Notes under the pieces: model-generated
What the model was told of the DNA's origin: nothing
Seen by the model: only the letters and a program-made list of their open reading frames with translations
The model's database searches: none
Shown here: positions 1,128-45,905 of the stretch, piece by piece
Layout: each line of letters opens with the position of its first letter
How positions within the stretch are numbered: the stretch's first letter is position 1
From: Rudaea sp. 3F27F6
GTDB taxonomy: Bacteria > Pseudomonadota > Gammaproteobacteria > Xanthomonadales > Rhodanobacteraceae
DNA: 64,000 nt
Direction: 5' to 3'
NCBI RefSeq assembly: GCF_005503555.1
Contig: NZ_SCNG01000005.1
Coordinates: 62,001-126,000 of the forward strand
Position numbers and translations under genes: made by a program

Positions 1128-1508
1128 GGTGCCGCAACGGCGGTAACGCCTCTCGCCGCAATCGATGCGTCGCCCGCATCTTCCGCGACGGCGATGGCAG
1201 AGGCGCGGATGCCGCCGTTGTCGAAGCAGTCCGTGCTTCGAATACGCGTCTCGCGGCCTTGCCGGAACTGGAATTCGCGAGTCGCCGAATCATCGTGCGG
1301 CTTGACTGCACGCGCGCTTCGGGCGCGGGATATGGCGAACTCTTCTTTTCTCGCAGGCGTGTGAGGAACGGCCGCACACTACAGCCTGCTTGCAGTGTGA
1401 TGGAGTTCGCTTTATTTTCTGTTGTTTCGCATATACAACTTTTGTCCATATATGATATCTTGAACTCGAAATTCTTCCTGATCGAGTCTTTGGGCCGCGT
1501 TTTCATTC
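1128..1508. other. Intergenic region upstream of the fucose operon
   Basis: 381 bases without a convincing gene. The last 90 bases are AT-rich against a GC-rich background and carry the IclR-type site at 1425-1438. This is the expected promoter region of the fucose catabolic operon. I see no convincing terminator for the gene to the left. Confidence 0.5.
1425..1438 (-). promoter_or_regulatory. Putative IclR operator upstream of the fucose operon
   Basis: TTTCGCATATACAA; its reverse complement matches TTTCATATACGCAA at 10 of 14 positions. It ends 70 bases before the first gene of the operon. It is one of the weaker members of the motif set. Confidence 0.4.
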
Positions 1509-2516
1509 ATGCACTCCGCCTCCAACGCCAGGCTTGCATCACTCAGTACGCTGGGCTTCGGCGCCGCGCCGCTCGGCAATCTGTACACGCAGGTCGGTGA
1601 CGAGGACGCGCACGCGGCGTTGGCGGCGGCCTGGGAAAACGGCATCCGCTATTTCGATACCGCGCCGTATTACGGTCACGGTCTTTCCGAGCGTCGGCTC
1701 GGCGAGGCGTTTGCCGCATGGCCGCGCGAGAAGTTCGCTGTTTCGACCAAGGTCGGGCGCGTCATCGAGAAAGACGCCACGCGCAGCGCGCAGATCAACG
1801 ACGGATTCGCCGTCAGCGGCAGCAGCGCGGTTTTCGACTACAGCGCCGACGGCGTGCGCCGCTCGTTCGAAGCGAGTCTCAAGCGCCTGCGCCTGGAGCG
1901 CATCGATATCCTGTTGCTGCACGATATCGGCAGCCTGACCCACGGAGCGAAACACCAGGCGGTCCTGCGCCAGGCGCTCGACGAAGCGTTGCCGGCGATG
2001 GCGCGATTGCGCGAGGAAGGTCTGGTCGGCGCGATCGGGCTCGGCGTCAACGAGCAGGAAGTCTGCCTCGACGTGCTGCCGCATTTCGATCTCGACTGCA
2101 TCATGCTCGCCGGCCGTTACACCCTGCTCGAACAGGACCGCTCGCGCGAACTCATGCAGCTGGCGCTCGCGCGTCACGTGAAAATTCTCGTCGCCGGGCC
2201 GTACAACTCCGGGCTGCTCGCCTCGGCGAGCGCTCCCGGTGCGACGTACGACTACGCTCCGGTCGATGCGGCGACACTGGCGCGCGCACGCAGCATTTAC
2301 GATGCCTGCGCCGCGGAAGGTGTCGACGTCGGTGCCGCGGCGCTGCAGTTTCCGCTCGCGCATCCGGCGGTCGGCACGGTCGTGGCCGGGATGCGTTCGT
2401 CCGCGGAAGTGCTCAGTGCCGCGGCGCGCCGCGATGCGGCGATTCCTGCGACGCTGTGGCGGCGCCTGCAGGCGGCGGGTATGCTGCCTTCCGACGCGGC
2501 TTTGCCTGCCTCATGA
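1509..2516 (+). CDS. Aldo/keto reductase, probable L-fucose 1-dehydrogenase
   Basis: Predicted to oxidise L-fucose to L-fucono-1,5-lactone with NAD(P)+ in the cytoplasm, the first step of the non-phosphorylating fucose pathway. The 335-residue protein has the AKR fold markers: catalytic Asp50 and Tyr55 in YFDTAPYYGHG, Lys81 in STKVGR and His138 in LLLHD. Length and motifs fit the D-threo-aldose 1-dehydrogenase / pyridoxal 4-dehydrogenase branch of AKRs. The ATG at 1509 has no clear Shine-Dalgarno sequence, but no better in-frame start is visible. It is the first gene of a five-gene operon, and its stop overlaps the next start (ATGA). The substrate is inferred from the downstream pathway genes; the AKR family is sure. 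Confidence 0.85.
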   Translation: MHSASNARLASLSTLGFGAAPLGNLYTQVGDEDAHAALAAAWENGIRYFDTAPYYGHGLSERRLGEAFAAWPREKFAVSTKVGRVIEKDATRSAQINDGFAVSGSSAVFDYSADGVRRSFEASLKRLRLERIDILLLHDIGSLTHGAKHQAVLRQALDEALPAMARLREEGLVGAIGLGVNEQEVCLDVLPHFDLDCIMLAGRYTLLEQDRSRELMQLALARHVKILVAGPYNSGLLASASAPGATYDYAPVDAATLARARSIYDACAAEGVDVGAAALQFPLAHPAVGTVVAGMRSSAEVLSAAARRDAAIPATLWRRLQAAGMLPSDAALPAS

Positions 2517-3385
2517 TCATCGACGCGCACCAGCATTTCTGGCGTGTGGATCGCGGCGACTACGATTGGTTGACGCCCGCGGCGGGCGCTCTGTATCGCG
2601 ATTTCGCCGCGGCCGACCTGGCGCCGCTGCTCGCGCACACGAACGTACGCGGCACCTTGCTCGTGCAGGCGGCGGCGACCGAGGAAGAAACGCATTACCT
2701 GTTCGAGCTGGCGCACAAACATGCCTTCGTCAAAGGCGTGGTCGGCTGGACGGAATTCGCCGCGACGGATGCCGCCGATCGCATCGCTCAGCTGAAGAAT
2801 GCCGGCGCGGGCAAGCTCAAGGGCCTGCGCCCGATGATCCAGGACATCGCCGATCCCGACTGGGTGCAGGAGCCGCACCTCGATGCCGCGTTCGATGCCG
2901 TGATCGCGCACGATCTGGTGTTCGATGCGCTGGTCAGGCCGCGGCATTTCAATGCGCTGAAGAAGCGCCTGCAGCGTCATCCCAAATTACGCACGGTGAT
3001 CGACCACGGCGGCAAGCCCGATATCGCGCATGCCGGCTTCGATCTCTGGGCACTGCATCTGGAGCGCTTGGCGCAGGAGACCGAGGCCTACTGCAAGCTG
3101 TCCGGCCTGCTGACCGAGGCCGCGCCGGGCGCGACGATCGACGATCTCGCCCCGTACGTCGATCACATCTTTGCCTGCTTCGGCGCCGAACGCGTGATCT
3201 GGGGCAGCGACTGGCCCGTGGTCAATCTCGCCTCGAACTATTTTGCCTGGCTCGACATGGCGCGGGCGCTGGTCGCGCGCTGCGCGCCGAATGCGGACGC
3301 GGCCGTGTTCGGCGGCACGGCCGTGTCGGTCTATCGATTGGATTCCCCGCAACACGCAGAAATCGATTTCACGAGAACGCTATGA
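2513..3385 (+). CDS. Amidohydrolase, probable L-fucono-1,5-lactonase
   Basis: Predicted to hydrolyse L-fucono-1,5-lactone to L-fuconate. The 290-residue protein belongs to the amidohydrolase-2 / COG3618 group. It opens with the metal-binding MIIDAHQHFW (Asp4, His6, His8) and carries DHGGKP in the middle and GSDWPV near the end, as in related sugar lactonases. The start overlaps the stop of the preceding dehydrogenase (ATGA) and the stop overlaps the next start, which suggests translational coupling. The lactonase assignment rests on position between a sugar dehydrogenase and the acid-sugar enzymes; the fold alone would also allow other hydrolases such as a dicarboxylate lactonase. Confidence 0.82.
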   Translation: MIIDAHQHFWRVDRGDYDWLTPAAGALYRDFAAADLAPLLAHTNVRGTLLVQAAATEEETHYLFELAHKHAFVKGVVGWTEFAATDAADRIAQLKNAGAGKLKGLRPMIQDIADPDWVQEPHLDAAFDAVIAHDLVFDALVRPRHFNALKKRLQRHPKLRTVIDHGGKPDIAHAGFDLWALHLERLAQETEAYCKLSGLLTEAAPGATIDDLAPYVDHIFACFGAERVIWGSDWPVVNLASNYFAWLDMARALVARCAPNADAAVFGGTAVSVYRLDSPQHAEIDFTRTL

Positions 3386-4128
3386 GTGGAAGATTGCAAG
3401 GAAAACACTGCCTGATCACCGCCGCGGGCGCCGGCATCGGCCGCGCGAGCGCACTGGCCTGCGCGCGCGAAGGCGCGAGTGTGCTGGCGACCGACGTCGA
3501 CGCGGCGGCGCTCGCTGCGCTCGCCGGCGAGAACGCGTCGATCCGCACGGCGACGCTCGACGTCACCGACCCAGCGCAGATCGCCGCGCTCGTCGCGGCG
3601 AACCCGGTCGTCGACATGCTGTTCAACTGCGCGGGCTATGTGCATGCGGGCAGCATCCTCGACGCCGACGAGGCCGCTTGGCGGCGTTCGTTCACGATCA
3701 ATGTCGACGCGATGTACTACACCTGCAAAGCCGTGCTGCCGGGCATGCTCGAACGCGGCCGCGGCAGCATCATCAATATGTCCTCGGTCGCGTCGAGCAT
3801 CAAAGGCGTGCCGAACCGTTTTGCCTACGGCGCGACCAAGGCGGCGGTGATCGGTTTGTCCAAGGCGATCGCCGCGGACTACGTCGCCCGCGGCGTGCGC
3901 TGCAATGCGATCTGCCCGGGCACGGTGAAAACGCCTTCGCTCGGCCAGCGCGTGAAGGCGATGGGCGGCGACGAAGCCGCCGTCTGGAAGAGTTTCACCG
4001 ATCGTCAGCCGATGGGGCGCCTCGGCGAAGCGGACGAGATCGCCGCACTCGTCGTCTATCTGGCATCGGACGAGTCTTCGTTCACCACCGGCACCACACA
4101 CGTCATCGACGGCGGCTGGGCGAACTGA
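3382..4128 (+). CDS. SDR oxidoreductase, probable 2-keto-3-deoxy-L-fuconate dehydrogenase
   Basis: Predicted to oxidise 2-keto-3-deoxy-L-fuconate to 2,4-diketo-3-deoxy-L-fuconate with NAD+. The 248-residue classical short-chain dehydrogenase has the nucleotide-binding turn TAAGAGIGRA (residues 13-22), NCAG, the active-site Ser in NMSSVASS (near residue 135), Tyr149 and Lys153 in YGATK, and a C-terminal substrate loop ending in IDGGWAN. The ATG overlaps the stop of the lactonase gene. It belongs to the same SDR branch as BDH2-like enzymes found in fucose and rhamnose oxidative clusters. The family is certain; the substrate comes from context. Confidence 0.85.
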   Translation: MSGRLQGKHCLITAAGAGIGRASALACAREGASVLATDVDAAALAALAGENASIRTATLDVTDPAQIAALVAANPVVDMLFNCAGYVHAGSILDADEAAWRRSFTINVDAMYYTCKAVLPGMLERGRGSIINMSSVASSIKGVPNRFAYGATKAAVIGLSKAIAADYVARGVRCNAICPGTVKTPSLGQRVKAMGGDEAAVWKSFTDRQPMGRLGEADEIAALVVYLASDESSFTTGTTHVIDGGWAN

Positions 4129-4138
4129 GGAGCGCACG

Positions 4139-4987
4139 ATGAAATTGTTTCGATATGGCGAAGCCGGCAGCGAGAAGCCGGGAATGCTCGATGCGGACGG
4201 TGTCGCGCGCGACTTGTCGCAGGTCGTCGACGACATCGCGGGCGACGTGCTGACGGCAGCGGGGTTGGCGACATTGCGCGCGCTCGATCCGGCCGCGTTG
4301 CCGCGCATCGCCGGCAACCCGCGTTACGGCGCCGCGGTCGGGCGCGTCGGCAAGATGATCTGCGTCGGCCTCAATTATTCCGACCATGCGGCGGAAACCA
4401 ACGCGAAGGTGCCGGATCTGCCGATTCTCTTTATGAAGGCCACGACGGCAATCGTCGGGCCGAATGACAACGTCGTCATCCCGCGCGACTCGGTCAAGAC
4501 CGACTGGGAGGTCGAACTCGGCGTGGTCATCGGCAATGTCGCGCGCGACGTGTCGCGCGAACAGGCGCTCGATCACGTCGCCGGCTATCTCGTCGTCAAC
4601 GATATTTCCGAGCGCGAGTTCCAGCTCGAACACTGCGGGCAGTGGGTGAAGGGCAAGAGCTGCGATACCTTCGGCCCGCTCGGTCCGTATCTGGTTACGC
4701 GCGACGACGTGGCGGACCCGCAGAACCTTGCCATGTGGCTCGAAGTGAACGGCCACCGCTACCAGAACGGCAGCACGCGCACGATGGTGTTCGACGTGGC
4801 CTATCTGGTCAGCCACGTCAGCCGCTACATGACCCTGATGCCCGGCGACGTGATTTCGACCGGCACGCCGCCCGGCGTCGGTCTCGGCCAGAAGCCGCCG
4901 ATCTATCTGAAACCGGGGGACGTGATGGAACTGGAAATCGAAGGTTTGGGCAGGCAACGTCAACAGGTAATTGGATGGCAACGATGA
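4139..4987 (+). CDS. Fumarylacetoacetate-hydrolase family, probable 2,4-diketo-3-deoxy-L-fuconate hydrolase
   Basis: Predicted to cleave 2,4-diketo-3-deoxy-L-fuconate to pyruvate and L-lactate, the last step of the non-aldolase fucose route. The 282-residue protein has the FAH-family core from [11 protein letters not shown], with metal ligands Glu124 and Glu126 in [10 protein letters not shown] and a following Asp in VVNDISERE, then STGTPPGVG near the end. A GAGG sequence precedes the ATG by 7 bases. The stop overlaps the dehydratase start (ATGA). It matches the LRA6-type hydrolases of oxidative rhamnose and fucose pathways. If the C-C bond is cut as predicted, the L-lactate would feed the lactate dehydrogenase at 17254. 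Confidence 0.85.
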
Positions 4988-6333
4988 ATCGAGAAACGGA
5001 TATTTCCCTGCGCAACGCTGCGGAAAAGAAACATGCGGCAAGCATCGTCGCGATCGAGGCGTTCGACGTGCGTTTTCCGACCTCGCGGCAGCTCGACGGA
5101 TCGGACGCGATGAATCCGGATCCCGATTATTCGGCCGCGTACATCGTGTTGCGTACCGACAGCGCGGACGGTCTCGCCGGCTACGGCCTCGTCTTTACGA
5201 TCGGGCGCGGCAACGACGTGCAGACCGCGGCAATCACCGCGCTCTCGCATCTTGTCGTCGGTCGCTCGGTGGACGACGTGCTCGACGATCTCGGCGGCTT
5301 TGCGCGTAGCCTCACCGCGGATTCGCAACTGCGCTGGCTTGGCCCGGAGAAGGGCGTCATCCATATGGCGATCGGCGGCGTCATCAATGCCGCCTGGGAC
5401 ATGGCCGCGCGCCGCGCGCACAAGCCGTTGTGGCGCTTCATCGCCGAGATGAGCCCGGAACAGCTCGTCGCACAGATCGACTTCCGCTATCTCACCGATG
5501 CGCTGACGCCCGCCGAGGCGCTCGGCATCTTGCAGCGTGCCGAAAGCGGCAAGGCCGCACGCATCGCCGAGCTGATCGAGAAGGGCTATCCGGCCTACAC
5601 GACCTCGCCGGGCTGGCTCGGCTACGCCGACGAGAAGCTCGTGCGTCTGGCCAAGGAGGCGGTTGCCGACGGCTTCCGTACGATCAAGCTCAAGGTCGGC
5701 GCGAACGTCGAGGACGATGTGCGTCGCTGCGGTCTCGCGCGCGCGGCGGTCGGCAAGGACATCGCCATCGCGATCGACGCGAACCAGCGCTGGGACGTCG
5801 GCCCCGCGATCGACTGGCTGCGCCGGCTGGTCGAATTCGACATCGCCTGGATCGAAGAACCGACGAGTCCGGACGACGTGCTCGGCCATGCCGCAATCCG
5901 CAAGGGCGTGACGCCGATGCCGGTATCGACCGGCGAGCACACGCACAATCGCGTGATGTTCAAGCAACTGCTGCAGGCTGAAGCGGTGGATCTGATTCAG
6001 ATCGATGCGGCGCGCGTCGGCGGGGTCAACGAGAATTTGGCGATCCTGCTGCTCGCGGCGAAGTTCGGTGTGCGCGTGTTTCCGCACGCGGGCGGCGTCG
6101 GCCTGTGCGAACTGGTGCAGCATCTGGCGATGGCCGATTTCGTCGCGATCACGGGCAAGATGGAAGACCGCGCGATCGAGTTCGTCGATCACTTGCACGA
6201 ACACTTTGTCGATCCGGTGCGGATTCGCGACGGCCGTTACCTTGCGCCGGCCGTGCCGGGGTTTTCCGCGCAAATGAAGGAGGAGTCGATACGCGAGCAT
6301 CGCTTCCCGGACGGCGCGATCTGGGCGGAGTGA
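4984..6333 (+). CDS. fucD: L-fuconate dehydratase, enolase superfamily
   Basis: Dehydrates L-fuconate to 2-keto-3-deoxy-L-fuconate. The 449-residue protein shows the mandelate-racemase-type layout: IKLKVG with the catalytic Lys pair (235/237), metal ligands Asp265 in DANQRW and Glu291 in IEEPTSPDD, another in STGEHTHNR, and His368 in [12 protein letters not shown] as general acid. This arrangement is that of characterised L-fuconate dehydratases from Xanthomonas. The frame extends upstream, but ATG 4984 overlaps the hydrolase stop, fits the family length and continues the coupling pattern. It is the last gene of the operon, followed by 390 bases of non-coding DNA. Being enzymatically upstream of the SDR and hydrolase while encoded last is common for such operons. 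Confidence 0.93.
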
Positions 6334-6723
6334 TCGACGTCGGAATTTGTTTGGCAGATTTACGCAATCGGTGCGGCGAACGCCGCGCAAGAAATTCTGC
6401 GTAGTCTACGAAGACGCAGGAAGCCGTTCGGCAGGGATCGCTGCTGCGCTGTTTGGATGATGGGATAACCGTAGTGTCGGGAAGGCCGCTACGAGACGAA
6501 ATTGCCGCAGGAAGCCGGGTTTGATCGCGATGCGCTGACGCGCGGGAGGTTTGCGTGCTGGCGTTTCGATGGTGTGTCCCGCGTGCGGGCTGCGCGGGGA
6601 GGAAAGTTGTTGCGGCGCAGCTTTCTTTCTGATTGAAATTTAGTTTTATATACGCAACAAAATAGATATTCACATTCCAAGTTCCCGGTCCCACGGGAAC
6701 GCCTTTGAGGGAGGGTAGAGTTC
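6334..6723. other. Intergenic region upstream of TonB receptor 1
   Basis: 390 bases with no credible gene. From about 6630 it is AT-rich and carries an IclR-type site at 6644-6657. A strong GGGAGGGT ribosome-binding site lies just before the GTG start at 6724. No clear terminator for the fucose operon is seen. Confidence 0.55.
6644..6657 (+). promoter_or_regulatory. Putative IclR operator upstream of TonB receptor 1
   Basis: TTTTATATACGCAA differs at one position from the best site (18573). It ends 66 bases before the receptor start, inside the AT-rich promoter segment. Confidence 0.55.
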
Positions 6724-9642
6724 GTGAAACGATCTTTTCTGTCGGCGGCCATCGGCTTCGCTCTGATCGCCACCGCCCATGCGTCGGCACCTGCCGATGC
6801 CGAGCAGCAACAACCCAGTTCCGCTTCCGCGAATGCGCAGCCCGCGTCGAAATCGCAGGCCGGCGCGTCAACTTCAGATACTACATCGGCATCCGGGCAG
6901 CCGGTGGAGATGAGTGAGATTCAAGTCACCGGCGTGCGCGCGAGTCTGGCCGAATCGGTGTCGCTCAAGCGCGAGGCGGATACGGTCAGCGATTCGATCT
7001 CGTCCGAAGACGTCGGTAAATTCCCGGTGCGCAACATCGCCGACGCGCTGCAGCGCATTACCGGCGTACAGGTCAACCGTTCCTACGGCGAAGGCAGCAC
7101 GATCAACCTGCGCGGCCTGCCGCCCGACATGGTGATGAACACCTACAATGGCCGCGAATTGCCGTCGCCGCAGGGCTCGCGCAGCGTGGACTATTCGATC
7201 CTGCCGACCGACTTCATCCAGTCGCTGACGATCTACAAGTCGCCGACCGCCGACATGCCGCTGACCGGCCTCGCCGGCACCGTCAACATCGAGCCGATCA
7301 AGCCGCTGAGCCTGAAGGAGCGCTTGGTTTCGGTCAACGTGACCGGCATCTACGACTACAATTCGAAGAAGGGCAATCCCGAGATTTCCGCGTTCTTCGG
7401 CGACAAGTTTCTCGACAACACGCTCGGCATCGCCTTCGGCGGACAGTACAGCAAGCGCGCGATCGCCAAGGACTGGAGTTCGTCGTGGTACTTCGAGCCG
7501 CGCCAGGAAGTCGGGCCGGGCGTGAGCCCGCTCTACCCGAACGGTTTCGATGCGAACCACAACGGCGTCTACACCGACACGTACCGGCTCTGGCATTACA
7601 CCGACGATCGCGAAGAATTCGGCACGCGCGAACGCAAGAGTCTGACCGGCATGGTGCAATGGCATCCGAACGAGTCGTTCGAATTCCACGGCGATTATCT
7701 GTACTCCTGGCAGCGCAACAACATCACGCCTGCGGCGGTCGAGATTCGCAATACGAATGCGGCCGGGGCTTTCTCCAACACGGTGACCGACCCCAACAAC
7801 GACATCATCGCGATGAACGTCGCGAACAACCAGATTTTCGCCTCGGCTTTCACCGGGCGCGATCTGGTGTTGCTGCAATCGCTCGGCGCGGGCGGCACCT
7901 GGACGCCGAACGAAAAATGGACGATCGAGGCCGGAGCTTCCAAAGGTGAGGCTTCGGAAAAGAACAACGCCAATCAGTTGCTCGCCTACACGTACCAGGA
8001 CACGTGGTACGACATGCGTACCGACATGGGCGGCCTGCCGTCGTGGGGATTCAGCAATCCGAATTTCAACCTGCTCGATCCGAACAACTACTACATCAAC
8101 GGCATCCGCGGCAGCCTGACGCGCAACAAGAACGAACAGCACTCGGGCCACATCAACGTCACGTTCCAGAGTGACCTGGGCTGGCTCAAGTCGGTGCAGT
8201 TCGGCGCCAATCAGTCGTCGAACTATTTCGGGCAGAACGGCTACAGCGTCTATACGAACAACATCCCGGTCCTCGCGCAACTCGCCGGACAGCCGGTGGT
8301 GACCTGCCCCGTGGTCGGCGGCAATTGCATCAGTGCAGCGCCGTACATGCGCCTGGCGCCGACCGGCGGCAACTATCTCGACAGCTATTCCGGCGGTTCG
8401 AGATTCCCGAAGAATTTTCTTTACGCCGATCCGTACGGCTTCTTCAGCCGCTATTCGATCGCGCAACTGGTCGCGGCGATTCCCGGGTTCCTGCAGTACT
8501 CGCCCAGCGCGAACGTCAACGAGCGGGTTCTCGCCGAGTATCTGCGCCTGAACTTCGGCGATGCGGACGACCGCTGGTCGGCGACGCTCGGCATCCGCCA
8601 CGAGAGTACGGATACGAGCGTGCGCACCTATTCGGTGGTGATGGACAAAATCGTCTACGATCCGAATGCGGACCAATTCGCCTCCCAGGCCAATCCGACG
8701 ATGAAGGCTTCGGTGTTGTCCGAGACGAGTTCGAGCAAGGGGCAGTGGCTGCCGTCCTTCACCTTCAAGTATTCAATCAACGACGACTGGCTGCTGCGCC
8801 TGGCCGCGGCGAAGGAAATGACCCGGCCGAACTTGAACAATCTGAGCCAGAGCCAGTATCTCGAAATTTTGCAGACGCCGACCGGCGGCGGCTATCCGCT
8901 CGCGGACACGAGTTCGGGCAATCCGCACCTCGAGCCGTACCTGGCGAATTCCTTCGATGCCTCGATCGAGTGGTACTTCAGCAAGGAAGGCATGGCGTCG
9001 GCCACCTTCTTCTACAAGGATGTGTCGAACTGGGAGTTCTCCGCGCAGGAGCACAAGACCTATCCGATCCATCTGGTCGACGGCACGACGCGCGACATTC
9101 CGTTCCTGGTGTCGACGATCGCCAACGGCGGCGGCTTGAAGATCAAGGGCGTGGAGCTGTCTTACCAACAGCCGTTCACGTTCTTGCCGGCGCCGTGGGA
9201 TGGATTCGGCGTCGTCGCCAACTACACCTACGTCGACGCCGGCGATGTGACGAACAAGGCGACCGGCGTGACCACGCCGACCTTGGGCATCTCGAAGAAT
9301 TCGTACAACGTCAGTGTCTACTACGAAAAAGAGAGTTTCAACGTGCGCCTTGCCTACAACTACAAGGGCGGTTATCCGGGCGCTTACCAGATGGGGCCGG
9401 GCAGCCCGAGCGGTCCGCTCGACTACTGGGGTGTTGCGCCCGTATACACCAAAGGCTACGGCCAGCTCGATTTGTCGGGCGGCTACAGAGTCAACGAGTG
9501 GTGCGAGGTCAACTTCTCGGTCATGAACGTGCTCAACAAGCCGGACTATCAGGACTATGTGCAGATCGGCGGCCAGAAGTATCAGCATGCCTACTGGCAG
9601 GAAGGGCGCATCGCGCAGATCGGCGTGCATATGAAGTTTTAG
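6724..9642 (+). CDS. TonB-dependent receptor 1 (oligosaccharide-type)
   Basis: Outer-membrane beta-barrel that would import an oligosaccharide using TonB energy. The 972-residue protein has a signal peptide (MKRSFLSAAIGFALIATAHA), a Ser/Gln-rich linker, a plug starting near residue 60 (EIQVTGVRASLAES) with GKFPVRNIADALQRITGVQV, and a barrel ending in a terminal Phe (HMKF). The plug is of the Xanthomonas/Caulobacter type common for plant-polymer receptors. The start is a GTG with a strong GGAGGG site 7 bases upstream. It sits between the fucose operon and a GH29 fucosidase and has an IclR-type site upstream, so a fucosylated ligand is inferred. No SusD-like partner is present. Confidence 0.93.
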   Translation: MKRSFLSAAIGFALIATAHASAPADAEQQQPSSASANAQPASKSQAGASTSDTTSASGQPVEMSEIQVTGVRASLAESVSLKREADTVSDSISSEDVGKFPVRNIADALQRITGVQVNRSYGEGSTINLRGLPPDMVMNTYNGRELPSPQGSRSVDYSILPTDFIQSLTIYKSPTADMPLTGLAGTVNIEPIKPLSLKERLVSVNVTGIYDYNSKKGNPEISAFFGDKFLDNTLGIAFGGQYSKRAIAKDWSSSWYFEPRQEVGPGVSPLYPNGFDANHNGVYTDTYRLWHYTDDREEFGTRERKSLTGMVQWHPNESFEFHGDYLYSWQRNNITPAAVEIRNTNAAGAFSNTVTDPNNDIIAMNVANNQIFASAFTGRDLVLLQSLGAGGTWTPNEKWTIEAGASKGEASEKNNANQLLAYTYQDTWYDMRTDMGGLPSWGFSNPNFNLLDPNNYYINGIRGSLTRNKNEQHSGHINVTFQSDLGWLKSVQFGANQSSNYFGQNGYSVYTNNIPVLAQLAGQPVVTCPVVGGNCISAAPYMRLAPTGGNYLDSYSGGSRFPKNFLYADPYGFFSRYSIAQLVAAIPGFLQYSPSANVNERVLAEYLRLNFGDADDRWSATLGIRHESTDTSVRTYSVVMDKIVYDPNADQFASQANPTMKASVLSETSSSKGQWLPSFTFKYSINDDWLLRLAAAKEMTRPNLNNLSQSQYLEILQTPTGGGYPLADTSSGNPHLEPYLANSFDASIEWYFSKEGMASATFFYKDVSNWEFSAQEHKTYPIHLVDGTTRDIPFLVSTIANGGGLKIKGVELSYQQPFTFLPAPWDGFGVVANYTYVDAGDVTNKATGVTTPTLGISKNSYNVSVYYEKESFNVRLAYNYKGGYPGAYQMGPGSPSGPLDYWGVAPVYTKGYGQLDLSGGYRVNEWCEVNFSVMNVLNKPDYQDYVQIGGQKYQHAYWQEGRIAQIGVHMKF

Positions 9643-9761
9643 CGCAGCGGACCGTTGCCGGCGCGTGCGCAGCCGCGGCTGCCTGTTTGCAACGGTTCCA
9701 TTTGAAATCGGTACGAGTGGGTATGCCTCGTTTTCTTGTACGACTATTTTGGGAACCCGTC

Positions 9762-11201
9762 ATGAAAGTAAAACCGTCGCTGTTGTTCACATCTGTTCTG
9801 ACCTCGCTGCTGGCGGCCGCTGCGCCCGCGTTCGCCGCTGAAGCACAGACGGCCGCGCATCCCGTCGCGGCGATCCAGGACAAGGAGACGCCGGCGCAGC
9901 GCGATGCGCGCATGGCCTGGTGGCGCGAAGCGCGCTTCGGCATGTTCATCCATTGGGGCCTGTACGCGGTGCCCGCAGGCGTGTGGAACGGCAAGCCGAT
10001 CGACGGCGTCGGCGAGTGGATCATGAACGACGCGTCGATTCCGGTTGCCGACTACAAGAAGCTCGCGCCGCAGTTCAATCCGACTCAGTTCGATGCGCAC
10101 GCCTGGGTTGCGCTGGCCAAGGCGGCCGGCATGAAGTACATCGTGATCACGTCCAAGCATCACGACGGCTTCGCCATGTACGACTCCAAGGCCGATCCAT
10201 TCAATATCGTGCAGGCGACGCCGTTCAAGCGCGATCCGCTCAAGGAACTCGCGGCAGAAGCGCAGAAGCAGGGCCTCAAGTTCGGTTTCTATTACTCGCA
10301 GGACCAGGATTGGACTGCACCGGGCGGCGCCGCGTACAAGACCGGCAACCATGCGCCGCCGACCTTCCATTGGGACAAGGCGCAGGACGGCAACTTCGCC
10401 GAGTACCTGCACAAGAAGGCGCTGCCGCAGCTCAAGGAACTGCTGACGAACTACCAGCCCGCGCCGGCGGTGATCTGGTACGACACGCCGACCAAGGACA
10501 TGACGCCGGAGCTCGCGTCCGAGTTCGTCGCGCTGACCAATGCGCATCCGAACCTGATCTGGAACAACCGCCTCGGCGGCGGCTATCCGGGCGATACGGA
10601 AACGCCCGAACAGCATATCCCCGCGCAGGGCTTCCCCGGCAAAGACTGGGAAACCTGCATGACGATGAACGAGACTTGGGGCTACAAGTCGACCGACACG
10701 AATTTCAAATCGACCGAAGTGCTGATCCGCAACCTCGTCGACATCGCGAGCAAGGGCGGAAATTACCTGCTCAATGTCGGCCCCGACGCGACCGGCGTGA
10801 TTCCGGCAGCCGAAGCGGAGCGCCTGCGCGAAATCGGCAAGTGGCTCGACGTCAACGGTGAGTCGATCTATGCAAGCGGGCCGACCCCGTTTGCCGGCGA
10901 TCACGGCAGCTACTCGGCCACGGAAAAGACAGTCGGTGAGGGCAAGCCGAAGTGGGTGCCGAAGTGGGATTGGCGCGCGACGACGAAGAAAGGCAAGGTC
11001 TACGTGCATCTGTTCGAGTGGCCCGGCACCACGCTGAAACTCGACACGGGCAAGGTCAAGGCGAAGTCGGCCTATCTGCTCGCCGATCCGCAGCACGCGC
11101 CGCTCGCGCTCAAGCAGGACGGCAAATCGCTCGAAGTGAAATTGCCCGAGAAGCCGCTCGATCCGATCGATACGGTGCTCGTGCTCGAAACCGGGTCCTG
11201 A
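9762..11201 (+). CDS. GH29 alpha-L-fucosidase, exported
   Basis: Releases terminal L-fucose from glycans, probably in the periplasm. The 479-residue protein starts with a signal peptide (VKPSLLFTSVLTSLLAAAAPAFA). The GH29 catalytic barrel follows: WWREARFGMFIHWGLYAVPAG, YIVITSKHHDGFAMYDS, and the likely nucleophile Asp241 in IWYDTP, then ETWGYKSTD and GGNYLLNVGPDATG. A short C-terminal beta domain closes it. I chose the ATG at 9762 because it gives a clean signal peptide; an in-frame ATG at 9723 would add 13 residues. It follows TonB receptor 1 by 119 bases and is one base before the next gene, so a receptor-fucosidase-GH141 operon is likely. Confidence 0.93.
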   Translation: MKVKPSLLFTSVLTSLLAAAAPAFAAEAQTAAHPVAAIQDKETPAQRDARMAWWREARFGMFIHWGLYAVPAGVWNGKPIDGVGEWIMNDASIPVADYKKLAPQFNPTQFDAHAWVALAKAAGMKYIVITSKHHDGFAMYDSKADPFNIVQATPFKRDPLKELAAEAQKQGLKFGFYYSQDQDWTAPGGAAYKTGNHAPPTFHWDKAQDGNFAEYLHKKALPQLKELLTNYQPAPAVIWYDTPTKDMTPELASEFVALTNAHPNLIWNNRLGGGYPGDTETPEQHIPAQGFPGKDWETCMTMNETWGYKSTDTNFKSTEVLIRNLVDIASKGGNYLLNVGPDATGVIPAAEAERLREIGKWLDVNGESIYASGPTPFAGDHGSYSATEKTVGEGKPKWVPKWDWRATTKKGKVYVHLFEWPGTTLKLDTGKVKAKSAYLLADPQHAPLALKQDGKSLEVKLPEKPLDPIDTVLVLETGS

Positions 11202-11202
11202 A

Positions 11203-13632
11203 GTGGGTTCTGGCCGACGTAGCGGCGCAGCACGGTTGCGTAGCGTCTGCGCCGCGTTCGCGCTCGCGGCGGCGCCGATGCTGCTCGGCGCGTCGGTTGC
11301 GCAGGGCGTCACCGATCCTGCGCAGAAGTACCGCGAATTTTCCGTCACGGCGACGAGCGGAGCGGCGACGCTGCAAGCCACGCTGCGCGAAGCGGCTGCG
11401 TTTCGGCGCGAGCATGCCGCCGTGCCGATCCGTATTCGCATCGCCGCGGGCCATTACTATCTGGATGCGCCGCTCAGGATCGGACCTGAACTCTCCGGTA
11501 CACAGGCCGCGCCCACCGAGATCGTCGCCGCCGATGCGGACAAGCCGCCGCATATCTACGCGGGTCGTCGCCTCGACGTGCAGTGGAAGCCATACCGCGA
11601 CGGCATCTGGCAGGCGCGGGTTGCATCGCCCACCTTCGATCAAATCTATCTCGACGGCAAAGCGCAGGTGCGCGCGCGTTATCCAAACTTCGATGCGAAC
11701 GCGCAGGTGCTCGGCGGCTATTCCGCCGATGCCTTGTCGCCCGCACGCGTCGCACGTTGGAAAAATCCCGCAGGCGCCATCGTGCAGGCTCTGCACGGCA
11801 GCCGCTGGGGCGGCATGCAGATTCCGATCCTCGGCAAGAAAAGCGACGGCAGCCTGATCTTCGGTGCGGCCGTCGGCAACAATCGCCCGTCGCCGCCGCA
11901 TGCGATCTATCGCTACGTCGAGAACGTATTCGAAGAACTCGACGCGCCCGGCGAATGGTTCTACGACGCGGCGCGCTCGACGCTGTATTTCCTGCCGCCT
12001 GCGGGCGTCGATTTGAAGCGTGCGAAGGTCGAGGTCGCTGGCGCCACGCGGATCTTCGACCTGCGCGGCGGAACCAACGCGCCGCTATGCCATCTGCGCA
12101 TCGCCGGACTCGCGCTCGGGCATGCCGGTGCGTCGTTCCTGCGCAATACCGAGCCGTTGCTGCGCAGCGACTGGATGATCGCGCGCGAGGGCGCCGTGTT
12201 CCTCGAACGCACCGAGGACATACGCATCGAGGGCAACGAGATCGCCGATTCAGGCGGCAACGCCGTCTTCGTCAGCGGCTACAACCGCCGCGTCGCGATC
12301 GCCGGCAATCATATCCACGACATGGGCGGCGGCGGCATCGATTTCGTCGGCATGCCGGCGGCGGTGCGCTCGCCGAGTTTTCGCTACGAAGACTTCGTAC
12401 CGTTCGAGCAGCTCGATCTCAAGCCGGGCCCGAAGTCGAACGACTATCCGGCCGATTCGGCAGCCGAGGACAATCTGATCCATCGCATCGGCCGCATCGA
12501 GAAGCAGGTCGCCGGCGTCGACGTCGACATGGCGATGAACATCCGCGTCGCCCACAACAGCATCTACGAAGTGCCGCGCGCCGGCATCAATATCGGCAGC
12601 GGCACCTGGGGCGGCCATGTGGTCGAGTACAACGATGTGTTCGACACCGTACTCGAAACCGGTGACCACGGTGCCTTCAACAGCTGGGGACGCGACCGCT
12701 TCTGGCATCCGGACCGCAAGACCATGGACGCGCTCAACGCCGCGCATCCCGGTTTGTGGAAGCTCGACGTGCTTACGCCGATCACGTTGCGCCACAACCG
12801 TTTCCGCTGCGATCACGGTTGGGACATCGATCTCGACGACGGCTCGTCGAACTATCGCATCCACGACAACGTGCTGCTCAACGGCGGCCTCAAGTTCCGC
12901 GAAGGTTTCTCGCGCGAGGCCTGGAACAACGTTATCGTCAATAACAGCTTCCATCCGCATGTGTGGTTCGCGCAGTCGAACGACGCGTTCGAGCGCAATA
13001 TCGTGATAGCGCCGTATCAGCCCATCCTCGTGCAGCATTGGGACGCGAAGATCGACAACAACTTGTTCCCGACCGAACGCGCATTGGCGGCGGCGCGCAA
13101 GCTGGGCCTCGATGCGCACTCCGCATTCGGCGATCCGCAATTTCTCGATTCTGCGCGCGGCGACTACCGAGTTGCTGAGAAGAGCCGCGCACTCGCACTC
13201 GGCTTCACCAACTTCGCCACAAACGATTTTGGCGTGCAGCGTGCGAGGCTCAAGGCGCTCGCGCGGCAACCGGTCTTCCCCGAGCTTGCGTCGGCGGCGG
13301 AGAAAGCGCCGGATCAGCGGTTTCCGTTCTTCGGCGCCGAAGTGAAGAACGTTTCGACCCTCGGCGAGCAGTCGGCCGCGGGACTGGCCGAAATCGCCGG
13401 CGTGCTGGTGCTCGATGTACCGCCACAGAGTGCGGCTGCGCGCCAAGGCTTGCGCGCCGGCGATGTCGTTGTCGAAGCCTCGGCGGATGCCTTCGGCAAT
13501 CCGGCCGAACGGATCGACAATGTTGCCGATCTGCAGCGCCTGCTGACCGCGCGGGCGTGGCGCGGTGAAATCGCCGTCGTCATTGCCCGCGATCAAAAGC
13601 GGCACACGCTGACTTTGCGGATCGGCGAGTAG
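11203..13632 (+). CDS. Right-handed beta-helix protein (GH141-like) with C-terminal PDZ domain
   Basis: Probable exported glycosidase. The 809-residue protein has a basic n-region and hydrophobic core (VCAAFALAAAPMLLGASVAQG) as signal peptide, then a long beta-helix with recurring N-x-I-x-x-x-G-G units (IEGNEIADSGGNAVFV, IAGNHIHDMGGGGIDFVG), roughly to residue 680. From about residue 710 it has a PDZ-type module (PPQSAAARQGLRAGDVVVEA). GH141 enzymes are beta-helix proteins that include an alpha-L-fucosidase and a xylanase; the position one base after a GH29 gene supports fucosidase or related activity, but I cannot confirm the family by alignment. The start is GTG at 11203. The PDZ fusion is unusual for a glycosidase. 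Confidence 0.75.
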   Translation: MGSGRRSGAARLRSVCAAFALAAAPMLLGASVAQGVTDPAQKYREFSVTATSGAATLQATLREAAAFRREHAAVPIRIRIAAGHYYLDAPLRIGPELSGTQAAPTEIVAADADKPPHIYAGRRLDVQWKPYRDGIWQARVASPTFDQIYLDGKAQVRARYPNFDANAQVLGGYSADALSPARVARWKNPAGAIVQALHGSRWGGMQIPILGKKSDGSLIFGAAVGNNRPSPPHAIYRYVENVFEELDAPGEWFYDAARSTLYFLPPAGVDLKRAKVEVAGATRIFDLRGGTNAPLCHLRIAGLALGHAGASFLRNTEPLLRSDWMIAREGAVFLERTEDIRIEGNEIADSGGNAVFVSGYNRRVAIAGNHIHDMGGGGIDFVGMPAAVRSPSFRYEDFVPFEQLDLKPGPKSNDYPADSAAEDNLIHRIGRIEKQVAGVDVDMAMNIRVAHNSIYEVPRAGINIGSGTWGGHVVEYNDVFDTVLETGDHGAFNSWGRDRFWHPDRKTMDALNAAHPGLWKLDVLTPITLRHNRFRCDHGWDIDLDDGSSNYRIHDNVLLNGGLKFREGFSREAWNNVIVNNSFHPHVWFAQSNDAFERNIVIAPYQPILVQHWDAKIDNNLFPTERALAAARKLGLDAHSAFGDPQFLDSARGDYRVAEKSRALALGFTNFATNDFGVQRARLKALARQPVFPELASAAEKAPDQRFPFFGAEVKNVSTLGEQSAAGLAEIAGVLVLDVPPQSAAARQGLRAGDVVVEASADAFGNPAERIDNVADLQRLLTARAWRGEIAVVIARDQKRHTLTLRIGE

Positions 13633-14022: not shown

Positions 14023-14071
14023 CGTTATGTTGATTGTTATATGAAATCGTGTTTTACTTTTGAACATAACG
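14023..14071. repeat. 9-bp perfect inverted repeat in the promoter of TonB receptor 2
   Basis: CGTTATGTT at 14023-14031 and AACATAACG at 14063-14071 are exact reverse complements, 31 bases apart, and they bracket the weak IclR-type site. It could be a paired operator for a looped or dimeric regulator, or a leader-RNA hairpin. Confidence 0.5.
14033..14046 (-). promoter_or_regulatory. Weak IclR-type site upstream of TonB receptor 2
   Basis: The reverse complement keeps TTTCATATA exactly, but the second half is degenerate (10 of 14 positions overall). It lies 79 bases before the receptor start. Confidence 0.35.
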
Positions 14072-17087: not shown

Positions 17088-17253
17088 GCAGGTCGCAGTG
17101 CAATTCCGCAAGGCATGTGGACCGGATTTGCAGTCGGTTGGATACCGGCTCGCGTGTACAACGCTAGACTGTCGCATCCGTTGAGCGCAATTGCGACGGT
17201 TTATCTGCACGCGCGCCCCGCTTGAAGACACAATCCGCTTTCTTCACTACGCC

Positions 17254-18402
17254 ATGCGCCTGACCGACTGCCACAACTTCCACGACTTCCGCAAAATGGC
17301 GCAGCGGCGGCTGCCCGGGCCGATCTTCAACTACATTGACGGTGCGGCCGACGACGAGGTGACGTATCGGCGCAATACCGCCAGCTTCGAGCGCTGCGAC
17401 CTGGTACCGAACGTGCTGCGCGGCGTCGAAGACGTCGATCTGTCGGCCAACGTGATGGGGCAGAAGCTCGCGCTGCCGGTGTACTGCTCACCGACGGCGC
17501 TGCAGCGCCTGTTCCATCACCGCGGCGAACGCGCCGTCGCCGCCGCGGCCGGAAAATTCGGCACGCTGTTCGGCGTGTCTTCGCTCGGCACGGTGAGCCT
17601 GGAGGAAGCGCGCGGCCTTTGCGGCGGCGGTCCGCAGTGCTATCAGTTTTATTTTCACAAGGACCGCGGCCTCAACCGCGCAATGCTCGAACGCGCGCGC
17701 GCCGCCGGCATCGAAGTGATGATGCTCACGGTCGACAGCATCACCGGCGGCAATCGCGAGCGCGACAAGCGCACGGGATTCTCGATTCCGTTCAAGCTGA
17801 CCTTGGCCGGCATGCTGCAGTTCGCCCGCAAGCCGGCGTGGGGCATCGACTACGTTACCCACGAAGCGTTCAAGCTGCCGCAGCTCGACGAGCACGTCGA
17901 CATGGGCGGCGGGGCGATGTCGATCAGCCGTTATTTCACCGAGATGCTCGATCCGTCGATGAATTGGGACGACGTTGCCGAGATGGTCAAGCTCTGGTCG
18001 GGCCGGTTCTGCCTGAAAGGCATCATGTCGGTGGCCGATGCGAAGCGCGCCGCGGACATCGGCTGTAGCGGCATCGTGTTGTCGAATCATGGCGGGCGGC
18101 AGCTCGACGGATCGCGCTCCGCGTTCGATCAGCTCGCCGAGATTGTCGACGCGGTCGGCGACCGCATCGACGTGCTTATGGACGGCGGCGTACAGCGCGG
18201 CACGCACGTACTCAAAGCGCTTTCGCTCGGAGCGAAGGCGGTCGGCCTCGGCCGCTACTATCTGTTCCCGCTTGCCGCCGCGGGCCAGGCCGGCGTCGAA
18301 CGCGCGCTGGAACTGATGCGCATCGAGATCGAACGCGGCATGAAGCTGATGGGCTGCACGTCGATCGATCAACTCTCGCGCGCGAATCTGCGCTTCCGCT
18401 AA
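17254..18402 (+). CDS. lldD: FMN-dependent L-lactate dehydrogenase / alpha-hydroxy-acid oxidase family
   Basis: Oxidises L-lactate to pyruvate, passing electrons to the quinone pool if it is the membrane-associated LldD type. The 382-residue protein has the family order: FNYIDGAADDE at the start, LALPVYCSPTALQRLFHHRGE, the active-site His279 in LSNHGGRQLDG, and the FMN phosphate site DGGVQRGTHVLKALSLGAKAVGLGR. It makes sense here because the fucose hydrolase product should include L-lactate. It stands alone behind a terminator, and no strong ribosome site precedes the ATG. Another alpha-hydroxy acid substrate (glycolate, mandelate) cannot be excluded by sequence alone. Confidence 0.87.
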   Translation: MRLTDCHNFHDFRKMAQRRLPGPIFNYIDGAADDEVTYRRNTASFERCDLVPNVLRGVEDVDLSANVMGQKLALPVYCSPTALQRLFHHRGERAVAAAAGKFGTLFGVSSLGTVSLEEARGLCGGGPQCYQFYFHKDRGLNRAMLERARAAGIEVMMLTVDSITGGNRERDKRTGFSIPFKLTLAGMLQFARKPAWGIDYVTHEAFKLPQLDEHVDMGGGAMSISRYFTEMLDPSMNWDDVAEMVKLWSGRFCLKGIMSVADAKRAADIGCSGIVLSNHGGRQLDGSRSAFDQLAEIVDAVGDRIDVLMDGGVQRGTHVLKALSLGAKAVGLGRYYLFPLAAAGQAGVERALELMRIEIERGMKLMGCTSIDQLSRANLRFR

Positions 18403-18572
18403 AGCTCTTCGGCTTTCCGCGGTGGTCGCGGAACGTCGGCATGCGCGCGGCAGCGTGCACCGCGCGCATATCCCCTGATCCGATCCGCGCATTCTCGGCG
18501 CGCGACTCGATTTCCACGCCTTTCGGCGAACGCGTTGCTGCGTCGCAACTTGATCTGCGCGCATGACCGATG

Positions 18573-18586
18573 TTTCATATACGCAA
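18573..18586 (+). promoter_or_regulatory. Putative IclR operator upstream of the GH29-like gene
   Basis: TTTCATATACGCAA is the sequence I use as the reference for the motif family. It ends 96 bases before the ATG at 18683 in an AT-rich segment. Confidence 0.55.
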
Positions 18587-18682
18587 GTAAATTTCATAAT
18601 TGAATAGACGTCGAATCGAACCCAAGGCTGTTCACGGCCGTTCGGCGCTCGCGACTCTCCAACCCACCACGCAGGAGAAGTT

Positions 18683-20955: not shown

Positions 20956-20983
20956 CGGTGACGGCGCGAAACCGCCGTCACCG
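20956..20983. terminator. Strong hairpin between convergent genes
   Basis: CGGTGACGGCG (20956-20966) and CGCCGTCACCG (20973-20983) form a perfect 11-bp stem with a six-base loop, between the convergent GH29-like gene and mutarotase gene. It overlaps the mutarotase stop codon. There is no T run on either side, so it is at best an atypical bidirectional terminator or an mRNA-end stabiliser. Confidence 0.5.
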
Positions 20984-21343: not shown

Positions 21344-21347
21344 GGCG

Positions 21348-22637: not shown

Positions 22638-22727
22638 GATAGTTTCCTCCCTCTGCGCGCGGTGTTTGGTGGACCCGGTGCCGCGCGGATAGAATTTTGT
22701 TGAAGTCTATCAGCAATATCGAAATCG

Positions 22728-22741
22728 TTGCAAATATGAAA
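22728..22741 (-). promoter_or_regulatory. Putative IclR operator between fucP and iclR-family gene
   Basis: The reverse complement TTTCATATTTGCAA matches the reference at 12 of 14 positions. It lies 90 bases upstream of fucP and 73 upstream of the regulator, where an autoregulatory site shared by both genes would be expected. Confidence 0.55.
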
Positions 22742-27374: not shown

Positions 27375-27443
27375 GTCGAGGCTCGTGGCGATAGTTTGTT
27401 GTTCGTCGCTCCCGCGCACTCAGCGGAAATGACGAATCGGGAG

Positions 27444-32542: not shown

Positions 32543-32631
32543 AGGCGACCTCGATGTTCGAAGGCGCCGCCTCTTCGCAGCGGCGGCGCGGGCATGCGGG
32601 CGATGGGCGCGACGATTGTAGCCAGCGGCGG

Positions 32632-32656
32632 AAAAAAAGCCCGGCCAGGCCGGGCT
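32632..32656 (-). terminator. Rho-independent terminator after TonB receptor 3
   Basis: On the minus strand, AGCCCGG/CCGGGCT with a five-base loop is followed by a run of seven T (plus-strand A run at 32632-32638). It lies 24 bases after the receptor stop and 90 before the GH20 start, so the hydrolases need readthrough or a promoter inside those 90 bases. Confidence 0.85.
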
Positions 32657-32679
32657 GGAGGGGAAACATCGCCGCACAG

Positions 32680-35621: not shown

Positions 35622-35645
35622 ATTTAGTTCAAATTAACAACTCGG

Positions 35646-35659
35646 TTTCATATATTCGC
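35646..35659 (+). promoter_or_regulatory. Weak IclR-type site upstream of TonB receptor 3
   Basis: TTTCATATATTCGC keeps the first nine bases of the reference motif exactly (10 of 14 overall), 80 bases upstream of the receptor start and 24 bases beyond the LacI-type site. Confidence 0.4.
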
Positions 35660-35745
35660 GCGTTGCAGCAAGGCTCATGTTGCGACCGCCGCCCCATGCG
35701 GCGGACGCGATGTGCAGGCGCAAAACTACAGGATCGAAACTGCGT

Positions 35746-45713: not shown

Positions 45714-45872
45714 GTGGAAAGTACCTTGGTGGAAATGGCGGAAGATTCGGCGGCCCGGTGGCGGCGCGCGGCAAACTCTATCATTCTGCGCGAGCGATCG
45801 GACTCGTTGCCGCGGCGCCGCGCACGGCGCAGTGAAAGGCGCTCACTGCGAATTGAAAGATACCCTTGTTGC

Positions 45873-45886
45873 TTGAGTATATGAAT
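45873..45886 (-). promoter_or_regulatory. Putative IclR operator, distal, second fucosidase operon
   Basis: The reverse complement ATTCATATACTCAA matches the reference at 12 of 14 positions. It lies 71 bases upstream of the GH29 start and 19 bases (start to start) from a second copy. Confidence 0.5.
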
Positions 45887-45891
45887 CTTGC

Positions 45892-45905
45892 TTTTGTATA
45901 TGAAA
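45892..45905 (-). promoter_or_regulatory. Putative IclR operator, proximal, second fucosidase operon
   Basis: The reverse complement TTTCATATACAAAA matches at 12 of 14 positions, 52 bases upstream of the GH29 start. The spacing of 19 bases to the distal copy puts both on nearly the same DNA face, suiting cooperative binding. Confidence 0.52.

What the first reader, a model, noticed from the sequence alone, without database searches (positions are those of the whole stretch)
1425..45905. A shared operator motif links eight sites to a fucose IclR regulon
Seen: sites close to TTTCATATACGCAA (or its complement) at 1425, 6644, 14033, 18573, 22728, 35646, 45873 and 45892. Agreement ranges from 10 to 14 of 14. 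All lie 50-100 bases upstream of a start: fucose operon, three TonB receptors, GH29-like gene, fucP/iclR and the second fucosidase operon. Known: IclR regulators bind short imperfect palindromes and often sit next to a target transporter gene. Inference: one IclR protein coordinates uptake, cleavage and catabolism of fucosides over 44 kb.
Basis: partly seen in the sequence, partly recalled or inferred. Interest (0 to 1): 0.72.

Follow-up and report, generated by a model that had tools for sequence, protein, structure and literature searches.

The report
IclR-type fucose regulon with tandem operators
A bacterium related to Rudaea appears to use one fucose regulator of the IclR family, binding a paired DNA site, to switch on uptake, release and breakdown of the sugar L-fucose together, and the same paired site recurs beside the same genes in many related bacteria.

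Summary
The real unit is not one 14-mer but two 16-bp palindromes (TGTTCATATATGAACA-like) with centres 19 bp apart, an arrangement known for IclR regulators. 400 kb of other contigs of the same genome give no pair as good. A genome-wide profile search reports four distinct places in 5.7 Mb, all in this window. In 197 family genomes the operator follows the IclR gene: 53 of 59 with it, 2 of 138 without. In 22 Xanthomonadaceae loci outside the training set it precedes iclR in 21 and the fucose operon in 21 of the 21 that show it. In relatives, 10 of 13 hits beyond those two promoters head or adjoin a TonB-receptor or fucosidase gene. Binding, ligand and the sign of control are untested; two window sites are weak. 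IclR-type fucose regulators and tandem IclR operators are known, so this is a new member of a known kind.

The parts
22815..23567 (+). IclR-family regulator (250 aa from ATG 22815; here called FucR)
   Evidence: HTH_IclR and IclR_C over Pfam cut-offs (on the longer ORF); orthologues at E<=1e-40 in 59 of 197 family genomes, own genome included
1424..1458 (.). Operator pair (16-mers 1424 and 1443) of the fucose catabolic operon
   Evidence: pair score 30.6, rank 2 in window; genome-wide profile hit
6624..6658 (.). Operator at TonB receptor 1: strong 16-mer at 6643, weak partner at 6624
   Evidence: pair 21.6, single 15.8; genome-wide profile hit; but other spacings score a little higher
14032..14066 (.). 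Operator pair (14032, 14051) at TonB receptor 2
   Evidence: pair 27.3; profile hit in window, not reported genome-wide. In L051 an operator (31.8) also precedes the TonB-receptor gene behind the beta-helix gene, though that receptor matches window receptor 4 best, at 31%
18572..18606 (.). Operator pair (18572, 18591) at the distant GH29-like gene
   Evidence: pair 32.5, best in window; best genome-wide hit
22727..22742 (.). Operator between fucP and iclR: one strong 16-mer, no clear partner
   Evidence: single 16.9, pair 12.4; block conserved in all 30 iclR-upstream regions inspected
35626..35660 (.). Operator pair (35626, 35645) at TonB receptor 3 / N-glycan-type genes; the weakest pair
   Evidence: pair 18.9; not reported by the profile; operators precede receptor-3 relatives in other genomes
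45872..45906 (.). Operator pair (45872, 45891) at the second fucosidase operon
   Evidence: pair 26.0; genome-wide profile hit
1509..6333 (+). Fucose catabolic operon: aldo/keto reductase, amidohydrolase-type lactonase (2585-3385), SDR (3390-4128), FAA hydrolase (4139-4987), enolase-superfamily dehydratase (4984-6333)
   Evidence: Pfam and NCBIfam; NCBIfam matches of these enzymes are below their cut-offs
6724..9642 (+). TonB-dependent receptor 1
   Evidence: Pfam
9732..11201 (+). GH29 alpha-L-fucosidase
   Evidence: Pfam E 1e-93
11203..13632 (+). Right-handed beta-helix protein
   Evidence: Pfam
14126..16948 (+). TonB-dependent receptor 2 (ATG at 14126)
   Evidence: Pfam; start
17191..18402 (+). 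FMN-dependent alpha-hydroxyacid (L-lactate-type) dehydrogenase
   Evidence: Pfam; L-lactate dehydrogenase models below their cut-offs
18683..20917 (+). Distant GH29-like protein
   Evidence: Alpha_L_fucos E 6e-8
20978..21382 (-). Mutarotase (rhaM Pfam family)
   Evidence: Pfam
21348..22637 (-). fucP, L-fucose:H+ symporter
   Evidence: TIGR00885 446 bits, cut-off 280
25998..35565 (-). TonB receptor 3 (32680-35565), GH20, GH2 mannosidase-type and GH47 genes: candidate N-glycan operon
   Evidence: Pfam; that they form one operon is inferred from order and strand
45958..48806 (+). Two GH29 genes (45958-47439, 47445-48806)
   Evidence: Pfam

Best explanation
The IclR-family protein at 22815-23567 (FucR) binds, probably as two dimers side by side, to paired 16-bp palindromes whose centres lie 19 bp (about two helical turns) apart, just upstream of seven promoter regions. 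Without L-fucose it most likely blocks them; L-fucose or a breakdown intermediate (such as L-fuconate or 2-keto-3-deoxy-L-fuconate) releases it. Release turns on TonB receptors, GH29 fucosidases, the FucP importer and mutarotase, the oxidative fucose pathway and an L-lactate-type dehydrogenase, and probably an N-glycan-type operon (TonB receptor 3, GH20, GH2, GH47). It also controls itself. Shown by sequence: the operator architecture, its conservation, its specificity and its coupling to the IclR gene. Inferred: binding, the tetramer, the ligand, and repression rather than activation (about 0.65).
For: A conserved block upstream of iclR in all 30 loci inspected. In 45 training promoters (29 iclR, 16 fucose operon; own genome left out) the spacing, free between 18 and 21, came out at 19 in 43 and 20 in 2. 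That matrix ranks six of the seven promoters first to sixth among the window's 19-bp pairs: 32.5, 30.6, 27.3, 26.0, 21.6, 18.9. In 400 kb of other contigs of the same genome the best pair is 16.9. The genome-wide profile search reported four distinct places at E<=10, all in the window (chance 1.6e-8). Co-occurrence: 53 of 59 against 2 of 138 genomes; without 21 training genomes 32 of 38 against 2 of 138. Xanthomonadaceae loci, none of them in training: 21 of 22 iclR-upstream, 21 of 21 fucose-operon upstream; 20 sphingomonad-type loci: 16 iclR-upstream (group counts read from its lists). In 19 relatives the profile gave 47 distinct places at E<=2: 34 at iclR or the fucose operon; of the other 13, 10 head or adjoin a TonB-receptor or GH29 gene, 1 lies about 440 bp from a PNGase-F-like gene, 1 between glucokinase and GH35 genes, 1 unresolved.
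Against: No binding or expression data. In this window iclR/fucP lacks a good partner unit (pair 12.4), and TonB receptor 1 scores lower at 19 bp (21.6) than at 18, 24 or 16. The weakest pair, 35626 (18.9), lies below the highest of 40 simulated windows (20.9) and was not reported by the profile even at full sensitivity. The genome-wide search did not report 14032, 22727 or 35626; its filters lose weak matches. The two same-genus loci L051 and L052 stay below the threshold at iclR (13.8, 17.8; their best spacing there is 20). In sphingomonads only 1 of 15 akr genes has the element upstream. Two family genomes without the IclR gene have an operator-like hit (G006, G077). No promoter could be placed with confidence, so the sign of control is open.
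Confidence: 0.9

Rival explanations
1. FucR is an activator of these promoters, recruiting polymerase from the paired sites when fucose or an intermediate is bound.
For: The elements lie 50-89 bases from the start codons, which leaves room for a promoter downstream; IclR-family members act either way (passage of PMC12566272).
Against: C. jejuni FucR, an IclR-type fucose regulator, is a repressor (PMC12566272 Discussion). Several of the few promoter-like hexamer pairs found overlap the elements, which would favour repression, but all are poor (4 mismatches of 12).
Confidence: 0.3
2. Another regulator, such as the LacI protein at 38013-39056, binds these sites and the IclR gene is only a target.
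For: A LacI gene lies inside the cluster, and an autoregulated gene is a target in any case.
Against: In 20-kb stretches around iclR from 19 relatives no match to this LacI was listed, and in 4 of 80 named loci only, yet the operator is there. The operator tracks the IclR gene. Half-site form and 19-bp tandem fit the IclR family (PMC8222616 passages).
Confidence: 0.05
3. The sites are chance AT-rich promoter sequence in a GC-rich genome.
For: They are short and AT-rich; single 16-mers of 14.2 or more also occur elsewhere (4 in 400 kb against 10 in the 64-kb window).
Against: No pair of 17 or more in 400 kb; top ranks with a matrix trained elsewhere; conservation across genera.
Confidence: 0.02
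4. Core regulon only: FucR controls fucP/iclR, the catabolic operon and the strong fucosidase and receptor-2 sites, while the sites at TonB receptors 1 and 3 do not work.
For: 6624 and 35626 are the two lowest of the six pairs.
Against: 6643 is among the four genome-wide hits; receptor-3 relatives (47-48% identical) have strong operators in six other genomes.
Confidence: 0.15

Closest known systems
FucR (Cj0480c) of Campylobacter jejuni, IclR-type repressor of fucose genes (PMC12566272; passages, Discussion read)
   Same: IclR-type regulator divergent from fucose transport and catabolic genes; fucose regulon; added fucose did not release it in gel shift, so an intermediate may be the ligand.
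   Different: Its regulon is almost confined to one locus; the words palindrome, binding site and footprint do not occur in that paper. Here fucosidases and TonB receptors are included. I did not compare the protein sequences.
IclR-family tandem operators (Suvorova and Gelfand, PMC8222616; passages, part of the abstract included)
   Same: Half-sites TGTYCRY / RYGRACA; tandem palindromes with centres 18-22 nt apart in 94 orthologous groups; the inner boxes here resemble their group 2 form.
   Different: Their group 1 spacer is W3-4 (17-18 bp); here the palindrome is 16 bp with two central bases. Their supplementary tables, which may list the Xanthomonas orthologue, could not be read.
KdgR and PcaR/PcaU/PobR (IclR family)
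   Same: Nearest named profiles (97.5 and 102.9 bits); a KdgR is the best solved structure by sequence (E 9e-14).
   Different: Scores far below the curated cut-offs (275 and 284.75).
Oxidative L-fucose pathway of Xanthomonas campestris (Yew et al. 2006, as cited in PMC5507952 passages; paper itself not read)
   Same: Same enzyme classes and a FucP.
   Different: The passages seen do not describe this regulator; they mention a FucR with predicted sites in other bacteria without naming its family.
nix N-glycan cluster of Xanthomonas (PMC5700972 passages)
   Same: TonB receptor with fucosidase and other N-glycan hydrolases.
   Different: Different gene set; control by a fucose regulator does not appear in the passages seen.

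Membership tests
IclR-family transcription factor | N-terminal IclR winged helix and C-terminal IclR effector domain | tested here: met
   HTH_IclR 60.2 bits (cut-off 22), IclR_C 62.7 (cut-off 24)
IclR-family operator, group 1 (PMC8222616) | TGTYCRY...RYGRACA half-sites | tested here: met
   Consensus TGTTTATATATAAACA, C or T in the fifth position; symmetry centres 7.5 and 26.5 (sites were picked with a symmetric matrix, so partly circular)
IclR-family operator, group 1 (PMC8222616) | Spacer W3-4 between half-sites | tested here: not met
   16-bp palindrome, spacer of two; width was set at 16 from inspection, other widths were not fitted
IclR-family tandem operator | Two palindromes with centres 18-22 nt apart | tested here: met
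   19 in 43 of 45 training promoters; 19 is best among 10-30 for 5 of 7 window promoters, not 6643 and not 22727
IclR-type fucose regulator (functional class of C. jejuni FucR) | Linked to fucose transport and catabolic genes | tested here: met
   fucP divergent; fucose-pathway genes within the stretch around iclR in 18 of 19 relatives
IclR-type fucose regulator (functional class of C. jejuni FucR) | Binds promoter DNA and responds to fucose in the cell | not testable with these tools
   needs gel shift and expression
IclR-type fucose regulator (functional class of C. jejuni FucR) | Orthology to Cj0480c | not tested
   sequences not compared
KdgR equivalog (NF011671) | Profile score over curated cut-off | tested here: not met
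   97.5 bits, cut-off 275
PcaR/PcaU/PobR subfamily (TIGR02431) | Profile score over curated cut-off | tested here: not met
   102.9 bits, cut-off 284.75

The most novel reading that the evidence does not exclude
FucR makes fucose the inducing signal for N-glycan use: the sugar released from fucosylated glycans turns on TonB receptor 3, GH20, GH2 and GH47 here, and a PNGase-F-like gene in Rudaea cellulosilytica. The same promoters also read the cell's carbon-storage state through a PhaR-like box (YTGCNNYGCARC). That box lies near 38 of 139 operators (about 2 expected), mostly within 13 bp, and in the window 2 bp from operator 6624. All ten genomes tested encode a PhaR-type protein.
Probability: 0.25. 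Interest if true: 0.6.

Novelty: new member of a known kind. Interest (0 to 1): 0.48.

Why it matters
It gives a testable operator for fucose genes in Rudaea, Dyella, Rhodanobacter, Luteibacter, Luteimonas, Pseudoxanthomonas, Xanthomonas and sphingomonads, and it names TonB receptors and fucosidases likely to belong to fucose use, so that receptor specificity can be guessed from promoters. An IclR-type regulon joining fucose catabolism, fucosidases and TonB receptors was not found in the open-access papers searched. Most subscription papers, RegPrecise and the supplementary tables of PMC8222616 were not searched, so a prediction may already exist there.

Tried and rejected
Single 14-mer matching as the main test: it works, but is too weak for 1425, 14033 and 35646, so it was replaced by the paired 16-mer model. 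LacI as binder: see rivals. The IclR paralogue elsewhere in the genome (C9:252954, 46% identical): the best pair in the 18 kb around it scores 10.7, so it was not taken as the regulator; cross-binding is not excluded. A further window pair at 54626 (17.4), just before the aminotransferase gene at 54661: set aside, because it is just over the control maximum (16.9) and lies among ACAACGTACA repeats that suggest another regulator. A full-sensitivity profile hit at 28870 (4.8 bits, E 4.8) was taken as chance. Placing -35/-10 boxes to decide the sign of control gave nothing convincing. The first scan for named relatives with one protein found nothing; it was repeated with an alignment, which kept the best 80 of 579. 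Loose terms for the GC-rich box gave mostly noise, but one listed paper held the PhaR motif. That loose pattern alone is barely enriched in the own genome (44 matches, 33 for the reversed control). PMC10858194 held nothing on this regulator. Rows dropped: of 45 training elements, 11 were left out of the list typed (two with spacing 20 and nine from genera already represented); of the 34 typed, three more were left out of alignment A2, which holds 31 elements in both strands. No literature call searched for the operator sequence itself.
Full report
WHAT WAS CHECKED. The window is positions 62001-126000 of contig 12 of a 5.70-Mb genome. A relative marked 'same genus' (G008) has the contig length and IclR position of Rudaea cellulosilytica DSM 22992, so the source is most likely a Rudaea species (inference). 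The eight sites are present as described. Genome-wide with up to 2 mismatches there are 16 matches, 5 in the window, and 6 for the reversed control.

GENES. Pfam and NCBIfam give an oxidative fucose operon at 1509-6333 (aldo/keto reductase, amidohydrolase-type lactonase, SDR, FAA hydrolase, enolase-type dehydratase); TonB receptor 1 with a GH29 fucosidase behind it; TonB receptor 2 followed by an L-lactate-type dehydrogenase; a distant GH29 gene; mutarotase and FucP (TIGR00885 over cut-off) divergent from iclR; TonB receptor 3 followed by GH20, GH2 and GH47; and two adjacent GH29 genes. This pathway should end in pyruvate and L-lactate (recalled), which fits the lactate-type dehydrogenase.

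AN INDEPENDENT MOTIF. All 30 loci inspected (29 from other genomes, ten genera) carry the same block, such as TTGCAAATATGAAAC or GTGCAAATATGAACT, at 10 to 15 of 15 matches. Upstream of the fucose operon in 16 relatives the best hit of a matrix made from the iclR blocks scores 10.1 to 23.2; the 95% point for random 350-bp pieces is 10.1. A two-unit model with spacing free between 18 and 21 settled at 19 in 43 of 45 promoters and at 20 in two. Each unit is a 16-bp palindrome: symmetry centres 7.5 and 26.5, whole element 17.0, over 94 distinct elements (these were picked with a symmetric matrix, so the check is partly circular, and other widths were not fitted).

BACK TO THE WINDOW. The matrix never saw the own genome. 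iclR/fucP has one strong unit (22727, second-best single site, 16.9) but a poor pair (12.4). Forty simulated windows (first-order Markov) had maxima averaging 11.5, the highest 20.9. Twenty 20-kb stretches from four other contigs of the same genome gave no pair of 17 or more (best 16.9). So four pairs are strong, 6624 is just over the simulated maximum, and 35626 is weak by itself. Tested over spacings of 10 to 30, 19 is best for five of the seven promoters; 6643 prefers 18 by a little and 22727 has no clear partner.

GENOME-WIDE. A 35-position profile from 31 elements of other genomes, in both strands, reported four distinct places at E<=10 in the own genome: the window's 18573, 1425, 45878 and 6634. 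It scored 150 of 180 first-look candidates and its filters lose weak matches. The full-sensitivity search of the window alone also gave 14039 and 22728, plus two poor hits (28870, 6658), and did not give 35626.

COUPLING TO THE IclR GENE. Of 197 family genomes, 59 have the IclR orthologue at E<=1e-40 and 55 an operator hit at E<=0.5; 53 have both. Two have only the operator (G006 and G077, no IclR match even at 1e-20), six only the IclR gene. Leaving out the 21 genomes that supplied profile elements it is 32 of 38 against 2 of 138. Read directly, five of the six misses have a 19-bp pair of 20.7 to 23.1 upstream of iclR (three of these five were among the matrix's training promoters) and the sixth, an incomplete gene, has one at 20 bp. 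In G006 the element lies at a gene with an FAD_binding_3 domain, probably the site of another IclR-type protein.

OTHER GENOMES. The named scan kept the best 80 of 579 relatives. In 55 loci with IclR 54-82% identical, nearly all Lysobacterales by title and some of them training genomes, an element of 19 or more lies within 350 bp upstream of iclR in 52 and upstream of akr in 47 of the 49 that show akr; 5 others occur in 1.10 Mb, three of them before a TonB-receptor gene. The iclR misses are L051 and L052, both close to the window's genus, and L104. Of the 55, 22 are Xanthomonadaceae, and no contig among them matches a training contig in length: 21 of 22 at iclR, 21 of 21 at akr. Of 20 loci from mostly sphingomonads (IclR 41-49% identical) 16 have it upstream of iclR, often between iclR and a divergent TonB-receptor gene, but only 1 of 15 akr genes there has it. 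Three Burkholderia loci have none, one Mesorhizobium locus a weak one (20.2), and one further locus (L105, 47%) has 21.5.

RECEPTORS AND FUCOSIDASES. In 19 relatives the profile gave 47 distinct places at E<=2. By position 34 are iclR or fucose-operon promoters. Of the other 13, ten head or adjoin a TonB-receptor or GH29 gene; six different receptors there are 47-48% identical to receptor 3. One place lies about 440 bp upstream of a PNGase-F-like gene in G008 (Pfam just over cut-off), one between glucokinase and GH35 genes, and one (G046) was not resolved. Starts were called mechanically, so some distances are rough, and in G037 an unidentified reading frame lies between operator and GH29 gene. 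Training used only iclR and fucose-operon promoters, so this independently supports cleavage and uptake as part of the regulon.

MECHANISM. IclR-family proteins are reported to have tandem palindromes 18-22 nt apart, which the authors tie to tetramers with both dimers on one face of the DNA (PMC8222616, passages). That fits 19 bp; the spacer of two inside each palindrome differs from their three or four. C. jejuni FucR represses fucose genes and binds their promoter, and added fucose did not release it (PMC12566272 Discussion). By analogy I favour repression relieved by fucose or an intermediate, but promoters could not be mapped, so this step is inference.

AN EXTRA. A GC-rich palindrome, YTGCNNYGCARC, lies near 38 of 139 operators in 76 named loci, against about 2 expected, mostly within 13 bp; many of the 38 are Xanthomonas and not independent. 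In the window it occurs at six places, two of them beside operators (6610, 18538). It resembles the PhaR motif of Sinorhizobium meliloti, core YGCRNYGCRN (PMC12542648 passages), and all ten genomes tested have a PHB_acc_N protein over cut-off. Its meaning is open.

VERDICT. The kind of system is known; this regulon and its operator were not found in the literature that could be searched.

Noticed in passing
window 6610-6621 and 18538-18549; loci L051-L126: GC-rich palindrome YTGCNNYGCARC near 38 of 139 FucR-type operators, resembling the PhaR box; PhaR-type proteins in all ten genomes tested.
   Followed up: partly
window 54545-54660: Repeats of ACAACGTACA and a pair-like element just before the aminotransferase gene at 54661; likely the site of another regulator.
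   Followed up: no
window 25998-27419: A GH47 gene (E 2e-118) behind TonB receptor 3, GH20 and GH2; GH47 is, from recall, uncommon in bacteria.
   Followed up: no
L186 4469-5725 (Rudaea cellulosilytica, G008): PNGase-F-like gene (Pfam just over cut-off) with a FucR-type operator about 440 bp upstream.
   Followed up: partly
L191 6413-6447 (G006): Strong tandem element (34.0) at an FAD_binding_3 gene in a genome without the IclR orthologue: the same operator form for another regulator.
   Followed up: partly
L180 6168-6999 (G011): A second IclR copy (53% identical) with its own operator, beside GH29 and TonB-receptor genes.
   Followed up: no
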